Of a DNA stretch of 64,000 nt, positions 5,512-18,520 are shown piece after piece. The stretch is from Pseudanabaena mucicola str. Chao 1806. Its GTDB lineage: Bacteria; Cyanobacteriota; Cyanobacteriia; Pseudanabaenales; Pseudanabaenaceae. Below the pieces are notes generated by a model. The model ran no database searches. It had not been told where the DNA came from and saw nothing but the letters and a program-made list of their open reading frames with translations. The position numbers were made by a program, and so were the translations under genes. The stretch covers positions 3,892,001 to 3,956,000 of the forward strand of contig NZ_CP097329.1 in assembly GCF_030323025.1 (NCBI RefSeq), in the 5' to 3' direction. Every line of letters starts with the position of its first letter. The first letter of the stretch is position 1.

Positions 5512-5599
5512 ATCGGTCAAACGGTCAGGATTGGTGGCACTTTGTGTCGCCAATCCTGACTCTAAAATCCTGCCATCTTTAGATCACTACCAAAACAAT

Positions 5600-7831
5600 A
5601 TGACGATCAAACGTAGAGACTTCCTAACTTTCTTAGGTGGTATGGGCGGAGCGATGCTATTTGATGCAGTTCCTCACAATCCTAATATCCCTAGATTCTC
5701 CATGCCCTTTATGGGTTCTGATTCAAGTGGTCAGGCTTTCGCAGCAAACTCATCTAAACTGAGCTTCAAACCAATTAAGGGTGTGATGCCATTAGTTACA
5801 GATGCGATCGCACCATCACAGCAGAGTCAAGCTTACAAAAATGTGGAAGTAGTTGACGATCTCGTTTTACCTGAAGGCTTTGTCTATGATGTAATTGCTG
5901 CATGGGGCGATCCTGTTGGCGATTCGAGGTTTGGCTATAACAACGACTATCTTTCCCTAATCGAAACTAGCAATAACGAAGGCTATTTAACCATCAATTT
6001 TGAATATATTAGTAGCGTTCCTTGGGAACAAACCTACGAGAAGGTGCTTGGGAAGTCTTTACCGTTTAGTGAAGTTGATGCGGCTCTGAAAGCACTAGAT
6101 AAAAAAGATATTGATGCTTGGAAGTTGGATGATAGTGATCCGCTCAAAGAAAAGATTGCTTTAATTTCTAAGGAAGCCTTAATTGATCTTGGTATTGGTG
6201 TAATTTCATTGCGCCGCAATCCTGATGGTAAATGGGTACGCACTAATTCCGAAGCCGATCGCCGTGTCACTGGGATATCTGGTTTGGAGGATGGACGCTA
6301 TCTCAAGTCAACTGGTCCTGCCGCAGCCATTTTTCGCAAAGAGAAAGGCTTGGGCTATACCGATAAATTAGGCGATCGCATTATTGGCACATTCAATAAC
6401 TGTGCAGGCGGTACGTCTCCTTGGGGAACAGTCTTTAGCGCAGAAGAGAACTATCAAAACTTCGTACCAGAGCCAGTCATGCCCGATGGTACTTCCTTCT
6501 CTCCTAGCAAGAAGAAATTTACCAAAGATGACGGTGAACTGGTCGGCGTTGCCAATGTGTTTGGTCTAGCAGGCAATAAGTATGGCTGGATGGTCGAAAT
6601 TGATCCTGCTAATCCCAATGACTACGGCACTAAGCACACATGGTTAGGACGCTTCCGCCATGAAGCGGTTGGTATTCGCGCTGAAGCAGGTAAACCATTA
6701 GTGTTCTATTCTGGTTGCGATCGCCGAGGTGGACATCTTTATAAATTTGTTAGCACAGGCATTGTCAAAGATCCCAAAGATAAAGCGAACTCTAAACTTT
6801 TAGAATCAGGAATGCTCTATGCTGCCAAGTTTAATGCTGATGGCACAGGTAGCTGGATTGCGCTAAAATCCTCGACAGCGATTAATCCGCATAAACTAGA
6901 AGTTCTTGCTGGGAAGATGCTGACACTGCCTCAACGTCCTGAAGGTGGCATTTTCAAGGCAACCAAAGAAGAAGAGATTGCAGATTTTAAATCTAAGTTT
7001 AAGACTTTAGGCGATCTGTATACGGGTAGCGATCGCGAGAAGCAAGGCGCAATTCTGATCGATGCCCACTACGCTGCTAATGCTGTTGGAGCAACCTGTA
7101 CTGCTCGCCCCGAAGATACAAAAATTGCCCCCGATGGTTCTCTATATATTGCCTTTACCTCTGGTTCCATAAGTTCCAGTGATGGTAGTCCCGATCTACG
7201 CATTTTTAAAGGAGCCGATGGTAAAGCTTACGAATATGGCTGGATCATGCGTCTTAACGAGGATGCAAATAAGCCTGAAGTCATGAATTTTAAATGGTCG
7301 ATGGTGGCTACAGGGGGTGAACCTGCTGAGGGTGGTCTAGGTTTTGCTAATCCAGACAATTTAGCAATTGATCGCGGTGGCAATATCTGGATGGTTACAG
7401 ATATTTCTACCGACAAATACAATCTCGCTATCCCCAATCGTCAAGATAAGTCTGGTAAGCCTGTGAGCCAATCCAATTTACGCGGGCTTTATGGCAATAG
7501 TTCGATTTGGTTTATGCCAACATCTGGTGAAAACTTGGGCAAGGCTTACTTATTTGGCTTTGGACCAATGGAATGCGAAACTACTGGTCCATTCTTCTCC
7601 CGCGATCAGCAGACACTTTTTCTATCGGTACAACACCCAGGAGAAGTGAAAGGCATTCGTAAGGACATGGCATTCGAGTCACGCAAATTTGCGATGCGAA
7701 CCACAAACGGTAAAGAGTTTACGCAAACTCGCAAAGTCCCCATCGGTTCCAACTGGCCCTCACGTAAGCCCAATGATTCACCAAAGCCTGCGGTAGTCGC
7801 CATTCGCAAGATTGATAACACTGCGATCTAA
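5600..7831 (+). CDS. PhoX-type alkaline phosphatase (DUF839), Tat-exported
   Basis: Secreted phosphatase of the PhoX family, which removes phosphate from organic esters using Ca and Fe. The ATG at 5600 gives the N-terminus MTIKRRDFLTFLGGMGGAML, a twin-arginine signal; a longer frame from TTG at 5531 would bury it, so 5600 is preferred. Family motifs seen are GGTSPWGTVFSAEENYQNF (metal-binding Glu), NPDNLAIDRGGNIWMVTD and GPFFSRDQQTLFLSVQHPG. About 743 residues, slightly long for the family. It follows the SLH porin and may share its promoter with the Pho-box-like repeats at 3738-3767. Family confident; substrate not shown. Confidence 0.88.
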   Translation: MTIKRRDFLTFLGGMGGAMLFDAVPHNPNIPRFSMPFMGSDSSGQAFAANSSKLSFKPIKGVMPLVTDAIAPSQQSQAYKNVEVVDDLVLPEGFVYDVIAAWGDPVGDSRFGYNNDYLSLIETSNNEGYLTINFEYISSVPWEQTYEKVLGKSLPFSEVDAALKALDKKDIDAWKLDDSDPLKEKIALISKEALIDLGIGVISLRRNPDGKWVRTNSEADRRVTGISGLEDGRYLKSTGPAAAIFRKEKGLGYTDKLGDRIIGTFNNCAGGTSPWGTVFSAEENYQNFVPEPVMPDGTSFSPSKKKFTKDDGELVGVANVFGLAGNKYGWMVEIDPANPNDYGTKHTWLGRFRHEAVGIRAEAGKPLVFYSGCDRRGGHLYKFVSTGIVKDPKDKANSKLLESGMLYAAKFNADGTGSWIALKSSTAINPHKLEVLAGKMLTLPQRPEGGIFKATKEEEIADFKSKFKTLGDLYTGSDREKQGAILIDAHYAANAVGATCTARPEDTKIAPDGSLYIAFTSGSISSSDGSPDLRIFKGADGKAYEYGWIMRLNEDANKPEVMNFKWSMVATGGEPAEGGLGFANPDNLAIDRGGNIWMVTDISTDKYNLAIPNRQDKSGKPVSQSNLRGLYGNSSIWFMPTSGENLGKAYLFGFGPMECETTGPFFSRDQQTLFLSVQHPGEVKGIRKDMAFESRKFAMRTTNGKEFTQTRKVPIGSNWPSRKPNDSPKPAVVAIRKIDNTAI

Positions 7832-7928
7832 TCAGTAGCTCAGCTCAACAAATGCTGCCAAATGGAAGGATTTACTTTGCGATTCTTTCCGTTTGGTAGC
7901 ATTGTTGCTATCTAGTGAGTTTCAGGAT

Positions 7929-8021
7929 TAGGACTTACGCAAACCGAACGAATTTATTAGGCTTGAGGTAGATGTGGTGCGGGCTTCGCCTGCACCACAT
8001 CTACCCAATGCGTAAGTCCTA
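7929..8021. repeat. 93-bp MITE-like palindrome, copy 1
   Basis: Terminal inverted repeats TAGGACTTACGC / GCGTAAGTCCTA (12 of 12) enclose a hairpin core GGTAGATGTGGTGC / GCACCACATCTACC. Near-identical copies are at 32635-32727 and, in the other orientation with one decayed end, 54070-54159. It carries no coding sequence. It occupies the gap between the PhoX gene and the toxin-antitoxin pair. Confidence 0.85.
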
Positions 8022-8061
8022 AGGATACTTTTAGCTTTAGCTTGGTAAAACTCAGTATTAA

Positions 8062-8100
8062 AAGCGATCGCCCTAATCATCTCTACAAATGGCGATCGCT
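8062..8100. repeat. HIP1-bounded 39-bp repeat left of the toxin-antitoxin pair
   Basis: AAGCGATCGC, then a spacer with CTACAAAT, then GCGATCGCT. The same 39-bp pattern, with a few substitutions, recurs at 8704-8742 and in decayed form at 8755-8789, so copies flank the mazEF-like pair on both sides. Confidence 0.6.
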
Positions 8101-8151
8101 ATTCGATGCTTATGCTACTGTAGGTAGTATTATGAGTAGCGTAAAATAGTT

Positions 8152-8370
8152 ATGAAAGTATCTATTTCTCTTCCAGATGAGTTAGTCCACTACGTTGATG
8201 ATCGCGTAGAAAATCGTAGTCGGCTCATTGAGGGGTTACTGCAAACATGGCGGAAGCAGCAGGAAAAGCAGGCGATGGTTGAGGCTTGTTTGTTGTTAGA
8301 TGAGTTGTCAAATGATGAGGAAGCAGCATGGCAGCAAGCAGCGATTATCGATTGGGAAGTATCTGGCTAG
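8152..8370 (+). CDS. Antitoxin of a MazEF/PemIK-type module (ribbon-helix-helix)
   Basis: 72 residues. The N-terminus MKVSISLPDELVHYVDDRV is a ribbon-helix-helix DNA-binding strand and helix, as in CopG/MazE-like antitoxins. The acidic C-terminal half (LLLDELSNDEEAAWQQAA) is the usual toxin-binding part. It should neutralise the toxin encoded immediately downstream and repress the operon. The two genes overlap by 43 bases in different frames, which couples their translation. Flanked by the repeats at 8062-8100 and 8704-8789. Confidence 0.82.
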   Translation: MKVSISLPDELVHYVDDRVENRSRLIEGLLQTWRKQQEKQAMVEACLLLDELSNDEEAAWQQAAIIDWEVSG

Positions 8371-8684
8371 TAAGTTTCGATCCTTCAATTGGTACAGAAA
8401 TTCGCAAAACTCGTCCTGCGGTGATTATCTCTGGAACTGCTTTTAATCAGCGTAGTAAGGTAACTGTGTTACCGATTACTTCTGCTAATCCTAGCGATCG
8501 CCTGCTTCCAGTGATTGCGCCTTTGGTTCCTTCTATTAATAATGGTCTTAGCAGTAATAGTTTAGTTGTCTGTATCGATCCGATGACTTTTGATAAACGT
8601 AGGTTGATTCAATGTCTTGGTCAAGTAGAAGCGAATCAATTGCAAGAGATACAACAGATTTTGGTTAGGTATTTAGAACTTTAA
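8328..8684 (+). CDS. MazF/PemK family endoribonuclease toxin
   Basis: 118 residues with the MazF/PemK core: GSIWLVSFDPSIGTEIRKTR near residues 11-30, followed by PAVIIS, then TVLPITS and VCIDPMTFDKRRL, which carry the conserved RNA-cleaving surface including the Arg of IRKTRP. MazF toxins cut mRNA at short motifs and arrest growth when the antitoxin is lost. The ATG at 8328 lies inside the antitoxin gene. The protein looks intact over its whole length, so the module may be active. Confidence 0.9.
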   Translation: MAASSDYRLGSIWLVSFDPSIGTEIRKTRPAVIISGTAFNQRSKVTVLPITSANPSDRLLPVIAPLVPSINNGLSSNSLVVCIDPMTFDKRRLIQCLGQVEANQLQEIQQILVRYLEL

Positions 8685-8703
8685 CTAGAAACGATATCTC
8701 AAG

Positions 8704-8789
8704 AAGCGATCGCACTAATAATATCTACAAATAGCGATCGCTAGTCTAGCAAGGAGATAGCACTAATAGTATCTACCAGATAGCGATCT
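8704..8789. repeat. HIP1-bounded repeats right of the toxin-antitoxin pair
   Basis: A 39-bp copy at 8704-8742 and a degenerate copy at 8755-8789 of the repeat at 8062-8100. They fill part of the 233-bp gap before the large NTPase gene. Confidence 0.55.
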
Positions 8790-8917
8790 CACAAAATAAC
8801 TACTCAAACCATTGTGTTTCGCCATTAGTTGCTACGTCGTGTTGCTTGAGGCTGCTGAGGGCAGATTAAAAGCAATCTAATGCATAATATTTATTAATGT
8901 CACAGTAAGAAATTGTA

Positions 8918-11900
8918 TTGCTAAGCATGAGCATAGATGGAAAACGATCAACTCAAGGTGACGAGTATCAATTGCGTGTAGCTCTACATTGGCTAATCCG
9001 CCTTTTGGATTGTGATTCTATTGATGGTATTCAAGTTAACTCAACGGGTGTCACGGGGCAAAATTATTTAGTTTCAGTTGACGATGTAGTTGTTCTTTAT
9101 AAAGATGGATCGGCTTGTTTTATACAAGCAAAAAAGAATCAGACTGACTATAAATCTTGGACTTTCTCTGATAAAACCTTGAAAGAAGAGTTACAGAAAG
9201 CTCGCAATCAGCTAGAAACTCGCGAAAACGCAGAAGTTTGTTTTTACTCTAGATCACCTTTTGGAGAATTAAAAGCACTTGTTGAAAACTGTAATAACTT
9301 TCCTGATTACTCAGCATTCCAGCGAAACAAAAATCAAAAGCAAATTGATGCATTGAAAAATTTTGCAACCATCATACAACGCTCGGAAGAATTAACTTTC
9401 AACCTCACCCGTAGAATCACATTTGGCGCAACTCATGAATTTGAGGATTGGGATCGATTAAATTTGGAAGCCCTTGATCGAATTGTACCTCGTGCAGAAA
9501 CAGTTAAAGTTATTCTTGAGAGATATCTAAGCAAACACGAAGCAAGCCTAAAAAGCTCCACATATATCATTACTCGCCAAGATATTTTGGACGAATTAAA
9601 TCGTCATGATATTAGTCCAACCCCTAAACGTACTGAATCGGAAATCTGTACTGCATTTAAATCTGCTTCGAGAATTGGTCGTAATTGGTTATGTACAATA
9701 GATGGCAAAAAGATTCCTCGTGCCGAATTATCTCGTCTTGTTGAACTTATTAAGCAAGACAGTCAAACAATTTTGCTAACTGATCGCGCAGGAAGTGGCA
9801 AAACTTGCTTGCTGCTTGATTTAGCAGATGAACTTGAAAGGATAGACTCTGTATATGGACTACTTTTTATAAAGGGCGATCAGTTTACAGAAATAAATTG
9901 CGAACAAGATTTGGTAGATAGAGGATTACCAGAAGACATTGTTGGACAATGCACTCGGTTGTCTGTCATTCGCCATGTTGTTGTTGTTATTGATTCCCTT
10001 GATGTCCTTTCATTAGGTCGTCAACATAGTGCGCTCAAAGTATTTCTAGGATTGATAGACCGACTCGAAAAAGTTAAGAATGTTACGGTTATTGCTGCCT
10101 GTCGAAATTTTGATTTACAGTACGATCCTTTGCTAAGGGGACGTACATGGTCTGAGACCATCCACATTCAACCACTGGATTTTGAGACTGTTGTAAAACC
10201 ATTTCTAATTGATTGGGGCATAGATCCTTCTACCCTTAGTACTAAACTTTGCAAATTACTGCAAATACCTCAACATTTGCGAATTTATGAAAAACTAGCA
10301 AAGCTTGGGAAGGGACTGAGTCCCGCAACAGATTACGAGCTTTATAACAGTTTCTTAGAAGAAGTCATTGTTAAAAATCCGTTGTTAGGAGACAGAGCTA
10401 TGATTGCTCTACAAAATATGGCTGATCACCTAGTACAAAAGCGCAGTCTATCTTGTAGCAAGGTCATTTTTAGTGATGGAGAAGAAATAGTTAGACATCT
10501 TATTAGCCAAGAGGTATTGTGGGAAAAAGATGAAGGTGTCTTGGCTTTTAGTCATCAAACTTTGTTGGATTGTTTAATTGTTCGTTCTTCGATAGCTAAG
10601 GAAAAAAGTTTAGCTGAATTCATTCTCGCTCATCCTCCCCTTCATTTTATCCGTCCATCAGTTCGAGCTTTTTTCTTTTACTTACGTGCTTACGAGCCAG
10701 ACATATTCAGAAGACAAGTATGGCAAGTGTTAGACAATAATGAAATCGCTTATCACTTCAAACGTCTAATTTGTGAATCTATTGCTGAAATTGTTCCTGT
10801 AAAGGAAGATTGGCTATTGCTCCTTAGAATTTTTAATCAGCATCCTGATCTGTTTCGGCGACTTTTAGAAAGAATAGGGCAGAATACTTGGTTTGATTTT
10901 CTCAGTAAAGAATGGCTAGCGGCTGCAAAAGCTTCGGAAAAACGAGAAGATTGGTTGCATCAATTCTGTTGGAAATTGGGAATATGGGTGAACGATTACC
11001 CACAAGAAGTTATATCCTTATGGCAGGAAGCAGTCAATTCTGAGTGGATAAACAATCAAGGTCTTATTCGGGCTATAAGCAATGGATTAGATAAATTTAA
11101 GGCATGGAATACTGAAGGTGTAAAAGAACTCCTCCAGTCACTCGTTAAAGCTGAAGATATTGGCACTGAAAATCACAGCCCTCTCGGTAAAGTCCTTAGC
11201 CGATGGGTACAGACTGTCAACTATGGGGATGAACTTTTATGGCAATACATTACTAGAAGTTTATCTTCTGATGACATATCCCAGAGAGGTATCGAACACC
11301 AACTACATTGTGACTCTCACGACTTTCATCACCCTGATTTTCTGGAGGAACGCTTAAAACAATCTGATGAACTTCTAAATTTAGTATTGAGGAGTGTTGA
11401 GGTTTGGAGTAATGATCATTATGAGAACAAATATGAGGCGACACGTTTAAAAACAGGCTTCTTATGGAATACATCTTGGAGATATAAACATAACAAGCAT
11501 GAGCATTACTATGCAGACGATCTCAACATTTTGATTGAGAGTGTGGAAAAAGCTCTAAAATATCGATCTCTTAGTAATGATGAGTGGTGGAAAGTAAATG
11601 AACCACAACTAGGCATTACTTCAGATGCAGCCTTTCGTTATCTTGTTATTGAGTCGTACAAAGAAAATGTTCAGGATAATATTGTTGGAATAGAGCGCCA
11701 ATTACAAGATGATAAACTGCTAAATTGCTGTGATCTCAACTATACATTGGGTGAGCTAATGCAAATAGCTTATCCATACATTTCAGGTTCGGCACAGACC
11801 AACAATCAAAATATAATTTTGAAACTATGCGGCGATCCACCTTTTGATATGGATGAATCCAAGCGTTTAAGCTGGATTTCATGGAAGAACCGCAAAATTT

Positions 11901-13537
11901 ACGATCTTCTAATTCGTATTCCATCTATTTTTAGAACAACAGAAACACAATCACATATCAATAAATGGCAGAATTGCTTTAATTACAACGAACCTTTACC
12001 TAATATTCATTCTCATAGCTGGACAGGAATCTCACCAGTTTCCAAAGAAGATTTTCTCAAGCTTTCTGATGAATCTATTTTTCGTTTACTACATTATTAT
12101 GACCAGTTCCCTGATGAAGACTCTTTTGACTTTAATTACACAAGAGTTGGGGGATTAAGCTCTCTTAAAAATCCCTTGAGTGAGGCTAGCTCTCTACATC
12201 CCATCCGCTTTCTAGACTTACTCCCACGTTTTGCAGAAGATAGTCTGCATCAGATGTATATACATTCTATAATCGATGGAATAGCAAATCATCTGCGCTG
12301 CCGTTTTGGTAACCTCAGCCTCAACTCAGGAGATGGATGGAAACCGATAGATCCCCTTCCTGACGGAACAATGCTTGCAGCTAAGTTACTAAATTTGCTA
12401 GAAAGATATCCGACAATTTGGAATGATATTCGGACAGTCAGCAATGCCTTAAAAGCTTGTTGTGATGTACTTGAAGATACTGAGTCATCTGAACGTTTAA
12501 CATTACTGCTCTTCTGGATTCGATCTAAAATCCCAGATCATGAAAAAAACATAAACTCCAATAGTGAAACAGATCTCGTTTCTCGTTTCCTCAATTCATC
12601 ACTAGGGATTGCAGCCGAAAGTTCAATAAAACTTTGCAATTGCTTGTTAGAAAAAGATCAGCCCCTACCTGAGTTGCTTCCACATTTACTCCATAGCTTT
12701 GCTCGTGATTCAACAATTTATCCACGAATTCCTATTCTTGAACAGATGCCTTTCCTATTGTATAAATTTTCCAATCTCGGATGGCAATTGCTAGCTGAAG
12801 TTTTTCAAGAGTCTCAACCAACTTTATGGAAATATGCAGAAAGATCCTTGTACAATCAGTATCAATCACAATTTCATAAAGTTGCTCCATATTTAGACCG
12901 TCTTATGAAAGAAGGTATGGAATATGCAGGCGATACATGGGGACGTATTTCCACACTAGCAAGTCTGTCAGGACATATCAGTCAAGAAGAATTATTTGAC
13001 TCCTTAGAAAAATCAAATAACTCTAATGCGTGGAAGGGGGCTACCCAAGTATTTGCTGCCAACTTAAATAAAAGTGAACATAGAGAAGTGTGTCATTCTG
13101 GATTGATCTCTATCTTGAAACAAAAAGATTTATCAGATGAAGTCATCAGAGAGATTGACCAATGTTTTGATAAAGAAGCAAATAGAGGATTTATTCGGCA
13201 CGATCTTGTTTCAGCATTTCTTAATGCCCTTTCCATATCCGTAGGTAGTCATGATATTTTTAAGTTCCTCGAATGGTTAGGTCGTGAATCTCGTTATAAT
13301 CCACTACTTTATCTAGAAATTATTGAAACTCTCGTTGGTAAACTTGAGGAAAAGCTGCAATCACGTCAAATATGGCATACCGAGCCATTGATCGTAGCTC
13401 TAAATGAAATTTTGCGTGAGGCAGATGAATCAGACGATCCTAAGATTATTCATCGTGCGATTAATTTACAAGACCATTTTCTTCGGCTAGGCATCAATGG
13501 TATTGAGGACATGATTGCAAAAGCTGAGCAAAGTTAA
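8918..13537 (+). CDS. Giant STAND-like NTPase with N-terminal nuclease domain (Avs-like candidate)
   Basis: 1539 residues. Residues 1-~200 look like a DUF4297/Cap4-type PD-(D/E)XK nuclease: Glu16 in the first helix, Asp55/56, then FIQAKKNQ with the Q-x-K pair at 70-72. Residues ~275-560 are a P-loop NTPase: Walker A DRAGSGKT (289-296, first Gly replaced by Asp), Walker B HVVVVIDSLD (353-362), an arginine-finger-like ACRNFDL, and a winged-helix-type end LAFSHQTLLDCLIVRSS as in NACHT/STAND proteins. The remaining ~970 residues have no recognised domain and read as long alpha-helical repeat. Nuclease plus STAND plus large C-terminal sensor is the layout of Avs antiphage proteins. Neighbours (MazEF, DUF3800, YhcG-like nuclease, Uma2) fit a defence island. 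Function is inferred; the start at 8918 is TTG or the in-frame ATG at 8927 (MSIDGKR). Confidence 0.7.
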   Translation: MLSMSIDGKRSTQGDEYQLRVALHWLIRLLDCDSIDGIQVNSTGVTGQNYLVSVDDVVVLYKDGSACFIQAKKNQTDYKSWTFSDKTLKEELQKARNQLETRENAEVCFYSRSPFGELKALVENCNNFPDYSAFQRNKNQKQIDALKNFATIIQRSEELTFNLTRRITFGATHEFEDWDRLNLEALDRIVPRAETVKVILERYLSKHEASLKSSTYIITRQDILDELNRHDISPTPKRTESEICTAFKSASRIGRNWLCTIDGKKIPRAELSRLVELIKQDSQTILLTDRAGSGKTCLLLDLADELERIDSVYGLLFIKGDQFTEINCEQDLVDRGLPEDIVGQCTRLSVIRHVVVVIDSLDVLSLGRQHSALKVFLGLIDRLEKVKNVTVIAACRNFDLQYDPLLRGRTWSETIHIQPLDFETVVKPFLIDWGIDPSTLSTKLCKLLQIPQHLRIYEKLAKLGKGLSPATDYELYNSFLEEVIVKNPLLGDRAMIALQNMADHLVQKRSLSCSKVIFSDGEEIVRHLISQEVLWEKDEGVLAFSHQTLLDCLIVRSSIAKEKSLAEFILAHPPLHFIRPSVRAFFFYLRAYEPDIFRRQVWQVLDNNEIAYHFKRLICESIAEIVPVKEDWLLLLRIFNQHPDLFRRLLERIGQNTWFDFLSKEWLAAAKASEKREDWLHQFCWKLGIWVNDYPQEVISLWQEAVNSEWINNQGLIRAISNGLDKFKAWNTEGVKELLQSLVKAEDIGTENHSPLGKVLSRWVQTVNYGDELLWQYITRSLSSDDISQRGIEHQLHCDSHDFHHPDFLEERLKQSDELLNLVLRSVEVWSNDHYENKYEATRLKTGFLWNTSWRYKHNKHEHYYADDLNILIESVEKALKYRSLSNDEWWKVNEPQLGITSDAAFRYLVIESYKENVQDNIVGIERQLQDDKLLNCCDLNYTLGELMQIAYPYISGSAQTNNQNIILKLCGDPPFDMDESKRLSWISWKNRKIYDLLIRIPSIFRTTETQSHINKWQNCFNYNEPLPNIHSHSWTGISPVSKEDFLKLSDESIFRLLHYYDQFPDEDSFDFNYTRVGGLSSLKNPLSEASSLHPIRFLDLLPRFAEDSLHQMYIHSIIDGIANHLRCRFGNLSLNSGDGWKPIDPLPDGTMLAAKLLNLLERYPTIWNDIRTVSNALKACCDVLEDTESSERLTLLLFWIRSKIPDHEKNINSNSETDLVSRFLNSSLGIAAESSIKLCNCLLEKDQPLPELLPHLLHSFARDSTIYPRIPILEQMPFLLYKFSNLGWQLLAEVFQESQPTLWKYAERSLYNQYQSQFHKVAPYLDRLMKEGMEYAGDTWGRISTLASLSGHISQEELFDSLEKSNNSNAWKGATQVFAANLNKSEHREVCHSGLISILKQKDLSDEVIREIDQCFDKEANRGFIRHDLVSAFLNALSISVGSHDIFKFLEWLGRESRYNPLLYLEIIETLVGKLEEKLQSRQIWHTEPLIVALNEILREADESDDPKIIHRAINLQDHFLRLGINGIEDMIAKAEQS

Positions 13538-13752
13538 TCAATAGTTCGATTTTTTACAATATTCCAAAAATGACAAATCAAATACTGGCAACATCTCGAA
13601 ACCCAGCAAGCAAGTTGAATATAAAACGTGCTATTGTATAGATAGCCCTTCCCTTCGCGAAGTCTCAAGTTCCACTTGGGATACGTCTAAAAACAATCCC
13701 TAAAAAGATTAGTCCAATGACATAGCAAGGGCGGGGCTTTTGATTGTCTAAA

Positions 13753-14583
13753 TTACTTAGTTTTCGATACATCAATTTCATGTTCTCTCGGCTTAAATAG
13801 CCAATGACGATAGGGATGTAACCAAGAATTTCTCACATCACTTCGCGCCGTACTCACCCCAATATTAAAGTTTGGATATATTTTACGAATGCACTGACTA
13901 ATGTACTTATATAGCTTTTCCTTTGCAATGGTTCTCTTACCCCGAAACCTTGAACCTTCTGGCTTTTCCTTATGCTTATCATTTAGCCGAAACTGCATTG
14001 AGCCTAAAACTATATCTAAACACTGCATAATTGCGTGATCATGAGACTTTACTTCAGCTATTTGATTCAACGAGATTTTAATATTTGCATCCTCAAATTG
14101 ACGAAAGTGATTTAGCCCAGCAATATACGCCTTAAAACTTGCAACCTTCTCTCTAGTGTCAGGCAAATCATCAAAATAGAGCCTAACTTGAATAGGTAAA
14201 TTTGTTGGATTAGAATATTGCAAACCAAAAGCGTGTTTTACAAACTGATAATACAGCAAAAAATATTCATTCTCTAATTGTTCAGAACGTAAGCTTTTAG
14301 CAACAATGCTATTTTGGGTAAACATAATCCTAGTCTTAATTTTATTCGCTTCCACTAGGTCAAAAAATGTTTCCATCAGCCCCAGATATTTACTTAAATA
14401 TTGATCTGTAACCTTTGACCATTTTGCTTCTTTCAATAAATTTAGTTCTATTTTCCGATCCTGCAAAATTTTTCGCACTTGATCCAAGTCCGAAGAACGT
14501 ACTAAGACACCACCATAAAAATTAGAGAAATATTTGCCATTATCAATTGATTCATCGCAATAGATTAAATATTCTTGAGACAA
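13753..14583 (-). CDS. DUF3800 domain protein
   Basis: The N-terminus EYLIYCDES is the usual first strand and acidic motif of DUF3800, a family with an RNase-H-like fold often found in phage, transposon and defence contexts; its role is unknown. Further acidic positions are YFDDLPD and the DHAIMQCLDIV stretch. There is no ATG before residue 100. The TTG at 14581-14583 gives a natural start just before the first strand; another TTG at 14656-14658 would add 25 atypical residues and overlap the divergent ATG, so I prefer 14583. Divergent from the YhcG-like gene and convergent with the giant NTPase. Confidence 0.68.
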   Translation of the reverse strand: MSQEYLIYCDESIDNGKYFSNFYGGVLVRSSDLDQVRKILQDRKIELNLLKEAKWSKVTDQYLSKYLGLMETFFDLVEANKIKTRIMFTQNSIVAKSLRSEQLENEYFLLYYQFVKHAFGLQYSNPTNLPIQVRLYFDDLPDTREKVASFKAYIAGLNHFRQFEDANIKISLNQIAEVKSHDHAIMQCLDIVLGSMQFRLNDKHKEKPEGSRFRGKRTIAKEKLYKYISQCIRKIYPNFNIGVSTARSDVRNSWLHPYRHWLFKPREHEIDVSKTK

Positions 14584-14657
14584 GCGAATTATCCTATCTT
14601 TTACTGAAAATTTGAGTATATTGTACCAAATGCTAAAGCGTCTTACTAGCAGCAACA

Positions 14658-15380
14658 ATGAACGAAGCCGATCTCAACTCACCACAGATTAATCCAGATA
14701 TCCAAGAAACAGCACAAAAACTCTTTAGGGAAATTAGTCATCTTATTGATGCCGCCAAACAACGTGCTGCGGTTGCTGTTATTAGAAATGCCGAACTTGT
14801 ACACAAACCTGAAGACCCCATTCGGCATCATTTAGAACAACTGCGTCAAGAGCAGCAAATATCCACAGACTTACTGCTAAAAGATCCCTACATTCTCGAC
14901 TTTTTAGATATAAGCGATCGCTACTATGAAAAAGACCTCGAAGATGCCATCCTGCGCGATATTGAGAAATTCTTATTAGAACTTGGAGCAGGATTTACCT
15001 TTATCGCAAGGCAAAAACGTATCCAAATCGATAACGATGACTTTTATATCGACCTACTGTTCTATAACCGCAAACTCAAACGCCTTGTTGCGATCGACCT
15101 CAAACTCGGCAACTTTCGCCATGAATATAAAAGTCAAATGGAACTTTATTTACGTTGGCTTGCCAAATATGACCAAGAGAGCGATGAACAGTCACCATTA
15201 GGAATCATTTTATGTGCAGGTAAAAAACAAGAACAGATTGAACTGCTCGAACTAGACAAAAGCGGTATCCATGTTGCTGAACACCTCACCGTATTACCAC
15301 CCAAAGAACTACTCCAAGCAAAACTCCAACAAGCGATCGCCTCAGCACGTCGGCAATTACCTTCATCGGAACAGGATTGA
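14658..15380 (+). CDS. YhcG/DUF1016-type PD-(D/E)XK nuclease with shortened N-terminus
   Basis: The C-terminal ~150 residues are the standard YhcG nuclease: LEDAILRDIEKFLLELGAGF, then FYIDLLFYNRKLKRLVAIDL with the D-x-L and D-L-K catalytic elements, then GNFRHEYKSQMELYLRWL. The N-terminus starts correctly (REISHLIDAAKQRAAVAV), but the usual YWQIG-containing DUF1016_N region of roughly 100 residues is absent. After NAELVHK it goes straight to the linker before the nuclease. At 240 residues it is about 100 shorter than typical relatives. The frame is open, so a shortened protein may be made. It may be a decayed or a minimal nuclease. Confidence 0.8.
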   Translation: MNEADLNSPQINPDIQETAQKLFREISHLIDAAKQRAAVAVIRNAELVHKPEDPIRHHLEQLRQEQQISTDLLLKDPYILDFLDISDRYYEKDLEDAILRDIEKFLLELGAGFTFIARQKRIQIDNDDFYIDLLFYNRKLKRLVAIDLKLGNFRHEYKSQMELYLRWLAKYDQESDEQSPLGIILCAGKKQEQIELLELDKSGIHVAEHLTVLPPKELLQAKLQQAIASARRQLPSSEQD

Positions 15381-15413
15381 TATGTTTTATTGATAGTAGT
15401 TCGATTTAATTAA

Positions 15414-15444
15414 ATGAAGTGACATACTCCGCATGTCACTTCAT
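15414..15444. terminator. Hairpin between convergent genes
   Basis: ATGAAGTGACAT (15414-15425) and ATGTCACTTCAT (15433-15444) form a 12-bp perfect stem between the ends of the YhcG-like and the Uma2 genes. No long T-run, so it is only a probable terminator. Confidence 0.5.
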
Positions 15445-15454
15445 GATCACGATC

Positions 15455-16120
15455 TTAAATTTCATCTTCAATGCCCAGTTCTCGTAATTTTGCTGCCAAG
15501 CGATCGGCACGTTGTTTTTCGAGTTGAGCTTGTTGTTCAGCCTGAAGCAACTTTTCCGAGGTGTCCTTCAGATTTGTGAATTTCTTGCCATCAGGGAAAT
15601 AAAGCTCTAATTGTTCGCCACTGAGATCAAAACGAATCCCCAATCTAGGGCTAACCCAACCATCAATGGCATCGATTACCTCTAGTTCATTGCCTATGCG
15701 TTGCCAGCCTGTTAACTCGATATCACTAGGATCATAAAGATAATATTCCTCAACGCCATATCGCTCATAAAACTTCAGCTTCTTTGCCATTTCACTGGTT
15801 CTATTGCCTGGAGAAAGAATCTCGAAGGCAACCTGAGGGGCAATACCACCCTCGACCCATTGCATATAGGAACCACGTCTGCCTTTCGGTCTACCAAATA
15901 CCACCATCGCATCGGGAGCCGTGCGAATCGTATTATCACCTTCAATGGGATACCAGAGTAAATCACCTGCGATAAATACATTAGGAGCGTTTGCAAAGAG
16001 ACATTCCAAGTTCTCTTTAATCATTACAATCCAGTCAAATTGCTCAGTATTGTTGCTCATCGGCAGCCCGTCATCGTCAGGATAAATAATTTTTTGAGAA
16101 GGTGGCATTTGTAAAATCAT
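15455..16120 (-). CDS. Uma2 family protein (putative PD-(D/E)XK endonuclease)
   Basis: 221 residues of the Uma2/DUF820 family. Visible are the APDAMVVFGRPKG segment with the first acidic residue, VAFEILSPGN, then KLKFYERYGVEEYYLYDP. A C-terminal coiled coil (KLLQAEQQAQLEKQRADRLA) ends in the common tail LAAKLRELGIEDEI. It is intact, unlike the family member at 44.1 kb. Upstream lies repeat element A with a nested MITE. The role of the family is unknown. Confidence 0.88.
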   Translation of the reverse strand: MILQMPPSQKIIYPDDDGLPMSNNTEQFDWIVMIKENLECLFANAPNVFIAGDLLWYPIEGDNTIRTAPDAMVVFGRPKGRRGSYMQWVEGGIAPQVAFEILSPGNRTSEMAKKLKFYERYGVEEYYLYDPSDIELTGWQRIGNELEVIDAIDGWVSPRLGIRFDLSGEQLELYFPDGKKFTNLKDTSEKLLQAEQQAQLEKQRADRLAAKLRELGIEDEI

Positions 16121-16225
16121 GGCTCAACCTCAAAAATGTTTGGTTATCTTCTAGGAAATCAGTTTTTTGTGGCAAAACTGCACTACAAAAAATCTAGATC
16201 CTTATTTTACTGCATCTCTCTTAAG

Positions 16226-16481
16226 TAGCTAGACATAAGTACTGATGTTACGTGGAAGTTTCTAAGACCCTCACCCCTAGCCCCTCTCCCATTAAGGGAA
16301 AGGGGAGCAAGAAATTAGTCTAGCTCCCCCTCTCCCATCAAGGGAGAGGGGGCAGGGGGTGAGGGTGATATTTGTTCCACGTAACATCAGATAAGTAAAC
16401 TAAAAACCGAGAGTTTTGTTCCATCCGCTATGCGGGCAGAACAAAACTCTGATTTGGGTTTTAATTAAGTTGAGCTACTTA
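16226..16481. repeat. Repeat element A, copy 2, split by a MITE
   Basis: Same element as 3585-3684 but inverted. It is split after TAGCTAGACATAAGTA by a 149-bp palindromic insertion and resumes at 16391. The uninterrupted copy 1 shows exactly how the two halves join. This and the IS right end fill the 472-bp gap between genes. Confidence 0.75.
16242..16390. mobile_element. 149-bp MITE nested in element A, with 7-bp target duplication
   Basis: Terminal inverted repeats of 16 of 16 bases (CTGATGTTACGTGGAA and its complement) surround a G/C-rich palindrome of the CCCTCACCCC/AGCCCCTCTCCC type. ATAAGTA is duplicated at 16235-16241 and 16391-16397. It carries no gene, so it must have been moved in trans. 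Confidence 0.8.
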
Positions 16482-16554
16482 CTCTTGTAACCATATTTCC
16501 AAGGCAGCACTAATCGAATCGCTGCCCGCTATGCTGCTTGGGTAATTCATGACC

Positions 16555-17860
16555 TTGACACTCCCCGCCCTGAAGTGACGGGGATTCCTGATTCAGCGAG
16601 ACAACTTACCAGATAGACTTGCATCTATTTGGCAGAGGTCGAGCTCTCCACAGGCGTTAATTTCCCTATGCCCTAGGGTATTTAGACCTTTAGCTAAGAT
16701 ATTCAAAGCAGCATTGTGGTCACGGTCTAATACAGTGCCACAAGGCCCACAGTGATGTGTACGCTGACTCAAAGTTTTGACAACTTGCTTACCGCAGTTT
16801 GAGCAATTCTGGCTTGTATATTGTGGCGGCACTGCAACCGTGACCTTACCAAATACTTTGCCAAAATACTCAACCCAATCTCGAAACATAGACCAGCTTG
16901 CATCAGATATTGATTTAGCTAATTTACGATTCTTGACCATATTTCGCACTTGCAAATCTTCATAAGCAATCAGGTCGTTAGACCTCACTACGCACCTTGC
17001 AGTCTTTACCGCAAAGTCTTTACGCTGCCTACTTACTTGCAAATGCTTTTTAGCTAATCGTTTAATTGCTTTTCTACGATTAGCAGATCCCTTTTTCCGC
17101 TTAGAAACCTTGCGCTGCAATTTTTTGAGTTGACGCTCTGACTTTCTAAGGATTCTGGGATTTTCGACTGTTTGACCATTGCTATCAGTGTAGAAGTGAT
17201 TAAGTCCAACATCCAATCCGATTGTGGTTTGAGTCGGCTCTATTTCTTCACGCCGATCAACATCAACACAGAATTGAGCATAGTAACCATCAGCCCGTCT
17301 TACCAGTCTGATTCGTTTTATCTGCTCTATCTGGTAGAAATTAAGGTCACGTGAACCGATTATTTTGAGTCTGCCAATCTTAAAGCCATCAGTCAAAGTT
17401 AGATGTTTCCGATCTTCACTAAGCTTCCATCCTGAAGTTTTGTATTCCACAGAATGACCACGCTTCTTGAATCTGGGAAAACCTTTCTTCCCCGATATCT
17501 TCTTTTTGCAGTTCTCAAAGAACCGATTAATCGCTGACCATGCTCTCTCAGCACTGGCTTGCCTTGCCTGTGAGTTTAGTTTTTTTGCAAATTTAAACTC
17601 TTTGGCAAGTACAGCACAATACTTATTGAGATCGTACTTGTCGCTATCCTTTACATCCATCCATAGATTCAAAGCTTTATTCCGCACAAACAGAGCAGTA
17701 CGAATTGCCTCATCGATGAGGTTGTACTGTCCTGTTTTGCCTTTTAGTTTTGCTTCGAGGACTAACATCGATTTGTAAAATCTTATGCTGTATATTGTTG
17801 CGTAGATTAATATAAAGCCGTCCTAGAAGGACGGGGTTTTAGACCCAATTTCCCGATAAA
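16555..17860 (-). mobile_element. IS605-type TnpB-only element, copy 1
   Basis: Ends are defined by comparison with the copy at 30433-31738: both are 1306 bp, start TTTATCGGGAAATTGGGT and end GTGTCAA, after which the flanks differ. A left-end hairpin (CCGTCC/GGACGG) and a right-end hairpin (CCCCG/CGGGG) lie near the ends, as in IS200/IS605 elements. There is no tnpA, so it depends on a transposase in trans. The omega-RNA should come from the right end and the tnpB 3' region. Confidence 0.85.
16593..17768 (-). CDS. tnpB: TnpB, RNA-guided endonuclease of an IS605-type element
   Basis: 391 residues. RuvC catalytic residues are visible in GLDVGLNHFY (Asp), IAYEDLQVRNM (Glu) and LDRDHNAALNIL (Asp), and a CSNCGK...CGPCG zinc finger lies before the last motif. 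TnpB cuts DNA with an RNA guide from the element's right end and helps the element persist after excision. The start at 17768 (MLVLEAKLKG) is chosen because sequence upstream of it is not conserved in frame between the two copies. It reads as an intact protein. The second copy differs at a few residues, for example GPCG here and GHCG there. Confidence 0.92.
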   Translation of the reverse strand: MLVLEAKLKGKTGQYNLIDEAIRTALFVRNKALNLWMDVKDSDKYDLNKYCAVLAKEFKFAKKLNSQARQASAERAWSAINRFFENCKKKISGKKGFPRFKKRGHSVEYKTSGWKLSEDRKHLTLTDGFKIGRLKIIGSRDLNFYQIEQIKRIRLVRRADGYYAQFCVDVDRREEIEPTQTTIGLDVGLNHFYTDSNGQTVENPRILRKSERQLKKLQRKVSKRKKGSANRRKAIKRLAKKHLQVSRQRKDFAVKTARCVVRSNDLIAYEDLQVRNMVKNRKLAKSISDASWSMFRDWVEYFGKVFGKVTVAVPPQYTSQNCSNCGKQVVKTLSQRTHHCGPCGTVLDRDHNAALNILAKGLNTLGHREINACGELDLCQIDASLSGKLSR

Positions 17861-17902
17861 TTCGGTAAGGATTTTGATCAAGGTCATGGTTATAATTCCT
17901 AT

Positions 17903-18520
17903 ATGAACCGAGAAGATTTGCGATCGCTAGAAATTACCAACTATCCCGTTGCAGGAGTTGATGAAGTTGGTCGAGGTTGCCTTTTTGGGGAAGTGGTCGC
18001 AGCAGCAGTAATTTTGCCTATTGAGAAAATGGCATATTTAGCAGATTTAGGCGTAACTGATAGCAAAAAACTGTCGGTATCAAGGCGTGAGCAGTTAGAT
18101 AAGAGCATTCGTGAAGTAGCGATCGACTATGCAATTGGGACTGCCTCGGTTGTAGAAATCGACCAGATTAATATTCTCGCCGCCAGTTTATTAGCAATGG
18201 AAAGAGCTATTTCTCAACTCAAGCCTCAGCCCAAGCATTGCCTAATTGATGGTAATCAGCCTTTACGCTTTCAACTGACTGCGCCTATTCCCCAAACAAC
18301 TGTCGTTAAGGGCGATTCTTTATCAATTTCCATCGCGGCGGCGAGTATTGTGGCAAAGGTATGGCGCGATCGGCAAATGATCGAACTTGCCAAAACCTAT
18401 ACAGGATATGACATTGCTACTAATAAAGGCTATGGAACTCCCAAGCATCGCGAAGCGATTAAGAACCTTGGTTACACCGACCTCCATCGCCAAACATTTA
18501 AGATCCGTGCAGCAGAATAA
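17903..18520 (+). CDS. rnhB: Ribonuclease HII
   Basis: Cuts RNA in RNA-DNA hybrids, including single ribonucleotides left in DNA. The N-terminal motif AGVDEVGRGCLFGEVVAAAV holds the catalytic Asp-Glu and the GRG loop; VTDSKKLS, CLIDGNQPL (Asp) and AASIVAKVWRDRQM (Asp) follow. At 205 residues it has normal length and looks complete. IS605 copy 1 ends only 43 bases upstream, so the element may have displaced or altered the native promoter. Confidence 0.95.
   Translation: MNREDLRSLEITNYPVAGVDEVGRGCLFGEVVAAAVILPIEKMAYLADLGVTDSKKLSVSRREQLDKSIREVAIDYAIGTASVVEIDQINILAASLLAMERAISQLKPQPKHCLIDGNQPLRFQLTAPIPQTTVVKGDSLSISIAAASIVAKVWRDRQMIELAKTYTGYDIATNKGYGTPKHREAIKNLGYTDLHRQTFKIRAAE

What the first reader, a model, noticed from the sequence alone, without database searches (positions are those of the whole stretch)
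8918..13537. Avs-like giant protein: predicted nuclease, STAND NTPase and ~970-residue helical sensor
Visible in the sequence: a Glu, Asp pair and Q-x-K arrangement typical of DUF4297/Cap4-type nucleases at the N-terminus, a P-loop with Walker B, a STAND-style winged-helix end, then a very long region with no recognised domain. Known Avs proteins have this order and recognise phage proteins through the C-terminus. The sensor part matches nothing I know, and the first Walker A glycine is Asp, so this may be a new subtype. It sits among MazEF, DUF3800, YhcG-like and Uma2 genes.
Basis: partly seen in the sequence, partly recalled or inferred. Interest (0 to 1): 0.75.

Follow-up and report, generated by a model that had tools for sequence, protein, structure and literature searches.

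The report
Cyanobacterial NLR-like nuclease immune receptor
This cyanobacterial gene encodes one large predicted anti-virus receptor (a DNA-cutting domain, an ATP switch and a long sensor arm); it belongs to a widespread family of bacterial immune proteins missing from the family libraries checked here, and its relatives show the killing domain being swapped from a nuclease to a caspase-type protease.

Summary
Residues 4-235 fold like Cap4/LmuA/DUF4297 nucleases, and all 26 family nuclease domains tested match LmuA. Residues 236-640 fold like the NACHT modules of NLRP3/NLRC4 and like Avs3/Avs4. Residues 641-1539 are a HEAT/ARM-like helical solenoid.

It matches no Avs1-5 model in PADLOC or NCBIfam, so I call it Avs-like, not a member of Avs1-5. 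It is not an orphan. About 90 relatives, mostly full length, exist in about ten phyla, and one (32% identical) has solved structures, PDB 9n00/9n01/9yix, titled only 'AAA family ATPase'. The Asp at the first Walker A position is shared by its whole clade, not a local defect.

The gene sits in a phoX-rnhB hotspot that is empty in one congener and holds a type IIG restriction enzyme in another; 1 of 26 genus genomes carries it. MazEF belongs to the hotspot, not to this system.

New point: in cyanobacterial relatives the effector changes from nuclease, to caspase plus altered nuclease, to caspase plus nuclease remnant, to caspase only. Anti-phage function and the ligand remain untested.

The parts
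8927..13537 (+). CDS of the Avs-like STAND protein, 1536 aa from ATG 8927 (the ORF caller's TTG is at 8918; residue numbers below count from 8918)
   Evidence: relatives and PDB 9n00 start at the same MS-x-x-G
8927..9622 (+). N-terminal Cap4/LmuA/DUF4297-type nuclease domain, residues 4-235
   Evidence: HerA-DUF4297 9c1m Z 16.6, rmsd 2.9; LmuA 9nxx Z 15.3; Cap4 7yib Z 13.8; LmuA E 4.5e-9; 26/26 relatives
9080..9085 (+). D55-D56, predicted metal-binding acidic residues
9125..9133 (+). Q70-A-K72, the QxK motif of the nuclease
9623..10837 (+). STAND/NACHT NTPase with helical and winged-helix parts, residues 236-640
   Evidence: Pfam AAA 2.4e-6; NLRP9/NLRP3/NLRC4 Z 24-25; Avs3 and Avs4 top Foldseek matches
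9782..9805 (+). Walker A, D289-R-A-G-S-G-K295-T296
9977..10003 (+). Walker B region with D359 and D362
10103..10105 (+). R396 of the conserved A-C-R motif (sensor-type arginine)
10553..10555 (+). H546 of the winged-helix F-x-H-Q-T motif
10838..13534 (+). C-terminal HEAT/ARM-like helical solenoid, presumed sensor, residues 641-1539
7926..8022 (.). MITE-like 97-bp interspersed repeat at the left edge of the hotspot (not part of the system)
8152..8684 (+). MazE and MazF genes; hotspot residents, not part of the system

Best explanation
A single-gene, NLR/Avs-like anti-phage receptor. In the resting cell the STAND/NACHT core holds the protein inactive. During infection the long helical arm binds a phage protein (direct recognition of a conserved phage protein is the most likely trigger). 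Nucleotide exchange and oligomerisation then bring the N-terminal Cap4-type nuclease domains together, and they cut phage and host DNA, stopping the infection at the cost of the cell. Shown here: the domain folds, the invariant catalytic and nucleotide-binding residues, the wide and mobile distribution, and the exchange of the effector while the NTPase and sensor stay. Inferred: phage as the trigger, oligomerisation, DNA cutting and cell death.
For: Nuclease fold and LmuA match (weak Pfam Cap4 match in 7 of 26 relatives). NACHT fold at Z 24-25, with Avs3 and Avs4 as the best Foldseek matches of the N-terminal model. Helical solenoid; among the 50 rows listed, Avs4 has the highest query TM-score, 0.39. 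Catalytic and Walker residues essentially invariant in 69 sequences. Effector modularity: caspase in place of or in front of the nuclease, GT4-conflict glycosyltransferase in L059. Gene found in 1 of 26 genomes of the genus, in a hotspot that is empty in G394 and holds a type IIG restriction-methylase in G407. Immediate neighbours of relatives match 130 PADLOC models at 1e-10 against 25 for genes 6.5 kb or more away, 100 proteins each. No conserved partner gene. Avs1-4 use nuclease effectors that cleave phage and host DNA on sensing phage proteins, and the three-part STAND build is general (PMC12931631).
Against: No phage challenge or biochemistry for this protein or, as far as the held papers show, for any relative; the paper behind PDB 9n00 was not found. 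None of the libraries searched here names the family as a defence system. The PADLOC counts are numbers of models, not of proteins, so the enrichment is only suggestive. The ligand is unknown.
Confidence: 0.77

Rival explanations
1. Same receptor, but it senses a disturbed host process (guard model, as proposed for bNACHT25 and DnaJ) rather than a phage protein directly.
For: A related bacterial NACHT-nuclease is proposed to work this way (PMC12169576). The sensor arm is conserved across about ten phyla, almost as well as the nuclease (window versus clade B: nuclease 31%, sensor 27-33%), which fits a conserved host target as well as a conserved phage target.
Against: The arm is a very long solenoid, with Avs4 the only bacterial defence sensor among its listed structural matches, and the Avs proteins studied so far respond to phage proteins (PMC12931631).
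Confidence: 0.22
2. Defence against plasmids or other mobile DNA rather than phages, in the manner of Lamassu and its LmuA nuclease.
For: The nuclease domain is closest to LmuA by sequence. Several relatives are themselves on plasmids or next to integrases.
Against: The core is a STAND/NACHT module with a solenoid, not the SMC-like partner of Lamassu; no such partner gene is adjacent to the window copy or recurs among relatives.
Confidence: 0.12
3. A degenerate or inactive gene.
For: First Walker A residue is Asp; 11 of about 84 relatives are split into more than one ORF, some perhaps by sequencing error.
Against: The window copy is intact over 4.6 kb with every other motif kept; the Asp is found in all aligned full-length members of its clade across several phyla.
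Confidence: 0.04

Closest known systems
PDB 9n00/9n01/9yix, 'AAA family ATPase', 1523 aa (Enterobacterales branch of the same family)
   Same: Full-length homologue, E 4.9e-218, all three parts aligned end to end
   Different: Only 32% identical; clade B with Gly in Walker A; title, organism and function not visible with these tools
Avs3 and Avs4 (AVAST)
   Same: Order nuclease - STAND - long helical sensor; top Foldseek matches for the N-terminal model, and Avs4 among the matches for the sensor
   Different: No match to any Avs model in PADLOC or NCBIfam; sensor profile finds no Avs chain in the PDB by sequence even at E 1
LmuA (Lamassu), Cap4 (CBASS), HerA-associated DUF4297
   Same: Nuclease domain fold, Asp...QxK motif
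   Different: Here fused to its own STAND switch instead of answering an SMC partner, a SAVED receptor or HerA
Bacterial NACHT proteins (bNACHT25 and others) and animal NLRs
   Same: NACHT-type fold with helical and winged-helix parts, Z 24-25 to NLRP9/NLRP3/NLRC4; nuclease effector in bNACHT25
   Different: Pfam NACHT only at E 0.0065, below its cut-off; far longer sensor
Caspase-STAND conflict proteins of multicellular cyanobacteria (PMC7159879, PMC8195603; seen as search results only)
   Same: Relatives L006, L007, L009, L012, L013 and L023 carry a caspase domain, most within caspase-gene arrays
   Different: The window copy keeps the nuclease and has no caspase neighbour

Membership tests
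Avs1-Avs5 (AVAST) | N-terminal effector, central STAND NTPase, C-terminal helical-repeat sensor in one chain | tested here: met
Avs1-Avs5 (AVAST) | Match to a curated Avs1-5 model | tested here: not met
   no Avs model listed at E up to 1 in PADLOC or NCBIfam for the window protein, nor in PADLOC for four relatives
Avs1-Avs5 (AVAST) | Direct recognition of phage terminase, portal, Ksap1 or JADA | not testable with these tools
   needs binding or activation assays
Avs1-Avs5 (AVAST) | Ligand-induced oligomerisation and DNA cleavage or NAD loss | not testable with these tools
   biochemistry
Cap4/LmuA/DUF4297-type nuclease domain | Fold | tested here: met
   Z 13.5-16.6 over 177-212 residues, rmsd 2.9-4.3
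Cap4/LmuA/DUF4297-type nuclease domain | Catalytic Asp and QxK | tested here: met
   D55 and K72 69/69, Q70 68/69
Cap4/LmuA/DUF4297-type nuclease domain | Profile match | tested here: met
   LmuA E 4.5e-9 for the window and 26/26 relatives; Pfam Cap4 only in 7 of 26 sequences, not in the window
NACHT/NLR-related STAND NTPase | NACHT fold with winged helix | tested here: met
   Z 24.9 to NLRP9, 384 residues aligned
NACHT/NLR-related STAND NTPase | Pfam NACHT above its cut-off | tested here: inconclusive
   16.8 bits against a cut-off of 26.7; Pfam AAA passes its cut-off
Lamassu | LmuA with adjacent LmuB (SMC) gene | tested here: not met
   no such gene next to the window copy, no conserved partner among relatives
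MazEF-linked system | MazEF co-occurs with the receptor | tested here: not met
   a 92% identical mazEF stretch sits in G407 without the receptor; no MazEF among recurrent neighbours

The most novel reading that the evidence does not exclude
An undescribed type of Avs-like receptor whose cyanobacterial branch shows effector exchange caught in progress: the gene enters caspase-gene arrays, a neighbouring caspase is fused in front of the nuclease, the nuclease then loses active-site residues, is deleted to a stub and finally disappears, while the same NTPase and sensor are kept.
Probability: 0.5. Interest if true: 0.62.

Novelty: new variant of a known kind. Interest (0 to 1): 0.48.

Why it matters
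It adds a widespread family of NLR-like bacterial receptors that the libraries searched here do not name, with one relative already solved in the PDB, and gives a natural series in which one sensor is paired with a nuclease, a caspase plus altered nuclease, or a caspase alone. That makes it possible to ask directly whether the sensor's target stays the same when the killing domain changes, and how immune receptors trade effectors.

Tried and rejected
Plain-protein scans of genome contigs and viral contigs found nothing; the alignment query found 92 relatives, 80 kept. Phage records: no match. E. coli genomes: no match to two Enterobacterales relatives, so the 9n00 branch was not located there. 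The paper behind 9n00 was not found; 9n00 does not appear in the fold-library results, whose entries end at 2026-04-08, so its title was not seen. A paper search for an Avs6-Avs10 name gave only unrelated hits among those listed. A partner gene was sought by clustering neighbours and rejected. MazEF as partner rejected. Walker A Asp as a defect rejected. The sensor's matches to importins, CAND1 and PP2A scaffolds are read only as a shared HEAT/ARM arrangement (Z about 11-14, within the range of unrelated helical repeats).

Full report
Observation. The ORF at 8918-13537 (+) is open throughout. Relatives start at MSxxG, so ATG 8927 is the likely start. Across 69 aligned full-length sequences the nuclease residues D55, D56 and Q70-x-K72, the P-loop G292-S-G-K295-T296, D359 and D362 of Walker B, R396 and H546 are essentially invariant. 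The Asp at the first Walker A position is real, but it is shared by 14 of 69 sequences: all the aligned full-length clade A members, from cyanobacteria, Thermodesulfobacteriota, Bacteroidota, Thiotrichaceae and Magnetococcales, plus L077.

Domains. An AlphaFold2 model of residues 4-640 built on 48 sequences has mean pLDDT 88. Its nuclease part matches HerA-DUF4297 (Z 16.6), LmuA (15.3) and Cap4 (13.8); residues 236-640 match NLRP9, NLRP3 and NLRC4 at Z 24-25. The best Foldseek matches of the whole are Avs3 and Avs4. By sequence, the window nuclease matches LmuA at 4.5e-9 and so do all 26 sequences tested; 7 of 26 also match Pfam Cap4_nuclease weakly. A model of residues 565-1539 (pLDDT 86) is a HEAT/ARM-like solenoid; importins and similar scaffolds fill the list, and Avs4 has the highest query TM-score (0.39) among the 50 rows shown.

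Family. A profile scan of one genome per species found 92 relatives, 80 of them kept and most full length; three full-length and one partial relative came from IMG/VR, five covering at least 80% of the query from cyanobacterial plasmids, and one more from the phylum-wide scan. A tree splits them into clade A (the window, ten other cyanobacterial rows, Thermodesulfobacteriota, Bacteroidota, Thiothrix, Magnetococcales) and clade B, mainly Pseudomonadota with Nitrospira, Chlorobi and others, including PDB 9n00. 9n00 aligns end to end (E 4.9e-218). Within clade B the nuclease averages 69% identity although members come from several phyla, which suggests much transfer between them. The sensor is only somewhat less conserved than the nuclease (window versus clade B 27-33% against 31%). 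No Avs1-5 model is matched.

Effector exchange. In the cyanobacterial branch the parts C-terminal of the effector stay about 50% identical or more while the N-terminus changes. The window, L005, L010, L011, L014 and L015 carry the nuclease. L009 and L023 carry a caspase (Peptidase_C14, with AGHG and DCCF motifs) in front of a full-length nuclease in which D56 is Asn and the conserved G-D before YQ is changed. L006, L007 and L012 carry the caspase and a stub of the nuclease, deleted between about residues 74 and 167, both Asp turned to Asn and the QxK lost. L013 has the caspase and no nuclease. On the tree the caspase carriers do not form one group without L010 and L015, so at least two changes are needed (my count). 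L009, L013 and L006/L012 also have further caspase genes within the flanks held, up to 80% identical to the fused domain, while none of L005, L010, L011, L014 and L015 shows one; the window genome has only two weak caspase matches elsewhere. Local fusion with a neighbouring caspase is the simplest reading, and an inference. L059 has a GT4-conflict glycosyltransferase in the effector place, and the distant relative L092 a nucleoside phosphorylase domain.

Setting. The gene lies between phoX (5531-7831) and rnhB (17903-18520). In congener G394 these two are 162 bp apart. In G407 mazEF and yhcG are kept at 92% and 96% DNA identity, but a type IIG restriction-methylase sits between them in place of this gene. 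G398 has other cargo, including an AAA protein weakly matching candidate PDC-S27. Only 1 of 26 genomes of the genus has the gene; a same-species genome shows no match, with its phoX contig ending inside the hotspot. Neighbours of relatives match many more PADLOC models than more distant genes do (130 against 25 at 1e-10), a rough measure because models, not proteins, are counted. Integrases recur near relatives. About 11 of 84 relatives are broken into several ORFs, one by an IS630 element.

Mechanism. The best-supported reading is a one-gene, NLR/Avs-like receptor that fires a Cap4-type nuclease when its solenoid meets an infection signal, most likely a phage protein, ending in DNA damage and loss of the infected cell. 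The folds, conserved residues, mobility and modularity are shown here; trigger, oligomerisation, cutting and defence are inferred from Avs and bacterial NACHT proteins (PMC12931631, PMC12169576).

Verdict. A specialist would find the receptor itself unsurprising, the breadth of a family that these libraries do not name useful, and the nuclease-to-caspase series the most interesting part.

Noticed in passing
window 7926-8022: A 97-bp MITE-like repeat with ends AGGACTTACGCA/TGCGTAAGTCCT and a strong internal hairpin; about 40 near-complete copies scored in this genome (more candidates were not scored), absent from the same spot in G407 and G398.
   Followed up: partly
window 7831-17903: phoX-rnhB is a defence hotspot of this genus: empty in G394, type IIG restriction-methylase in G407, other cargo in G398, this receptor in the window.
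   Followed up: yes
L006 3904-16495 (also L007, L012): Three tandem caspase-headed genes on conjugative cyanobacterial plasmids: caspase-nSTAND1-trypsin, the caspase form of this family, and a further caspase-family protein followed by a WD40 gene.
   Followed up: partly
L059 354-5663: Rhodoferax relative with a GT4-conflict glycosyltransferase as N-terminal effector in front of the same NTPase and sensor.
   Followed up: no
L092 7065-11897: Distant relative on an IMG/VR contig with a nucleoside phosphorylase domain before the STAND core.
   Followed up: no
L005 10007-15832: Nostoc sp. MS1 plasmid copy interrupted by an IS630 transposase gene, about 6 kb from CRISPR cas1-cas2 genes annotated as type I-MYXAN.
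   Followed up: no
L003, L004: Distant relatives (29% over the NTPase) in another family of the phylum with a different N-terminal domain that also looks nuclease-like.
   Followed up: no
window 16593-17768: IS605 OrfB/TnpB-like gene inside the hotspot.
   Followed up: no
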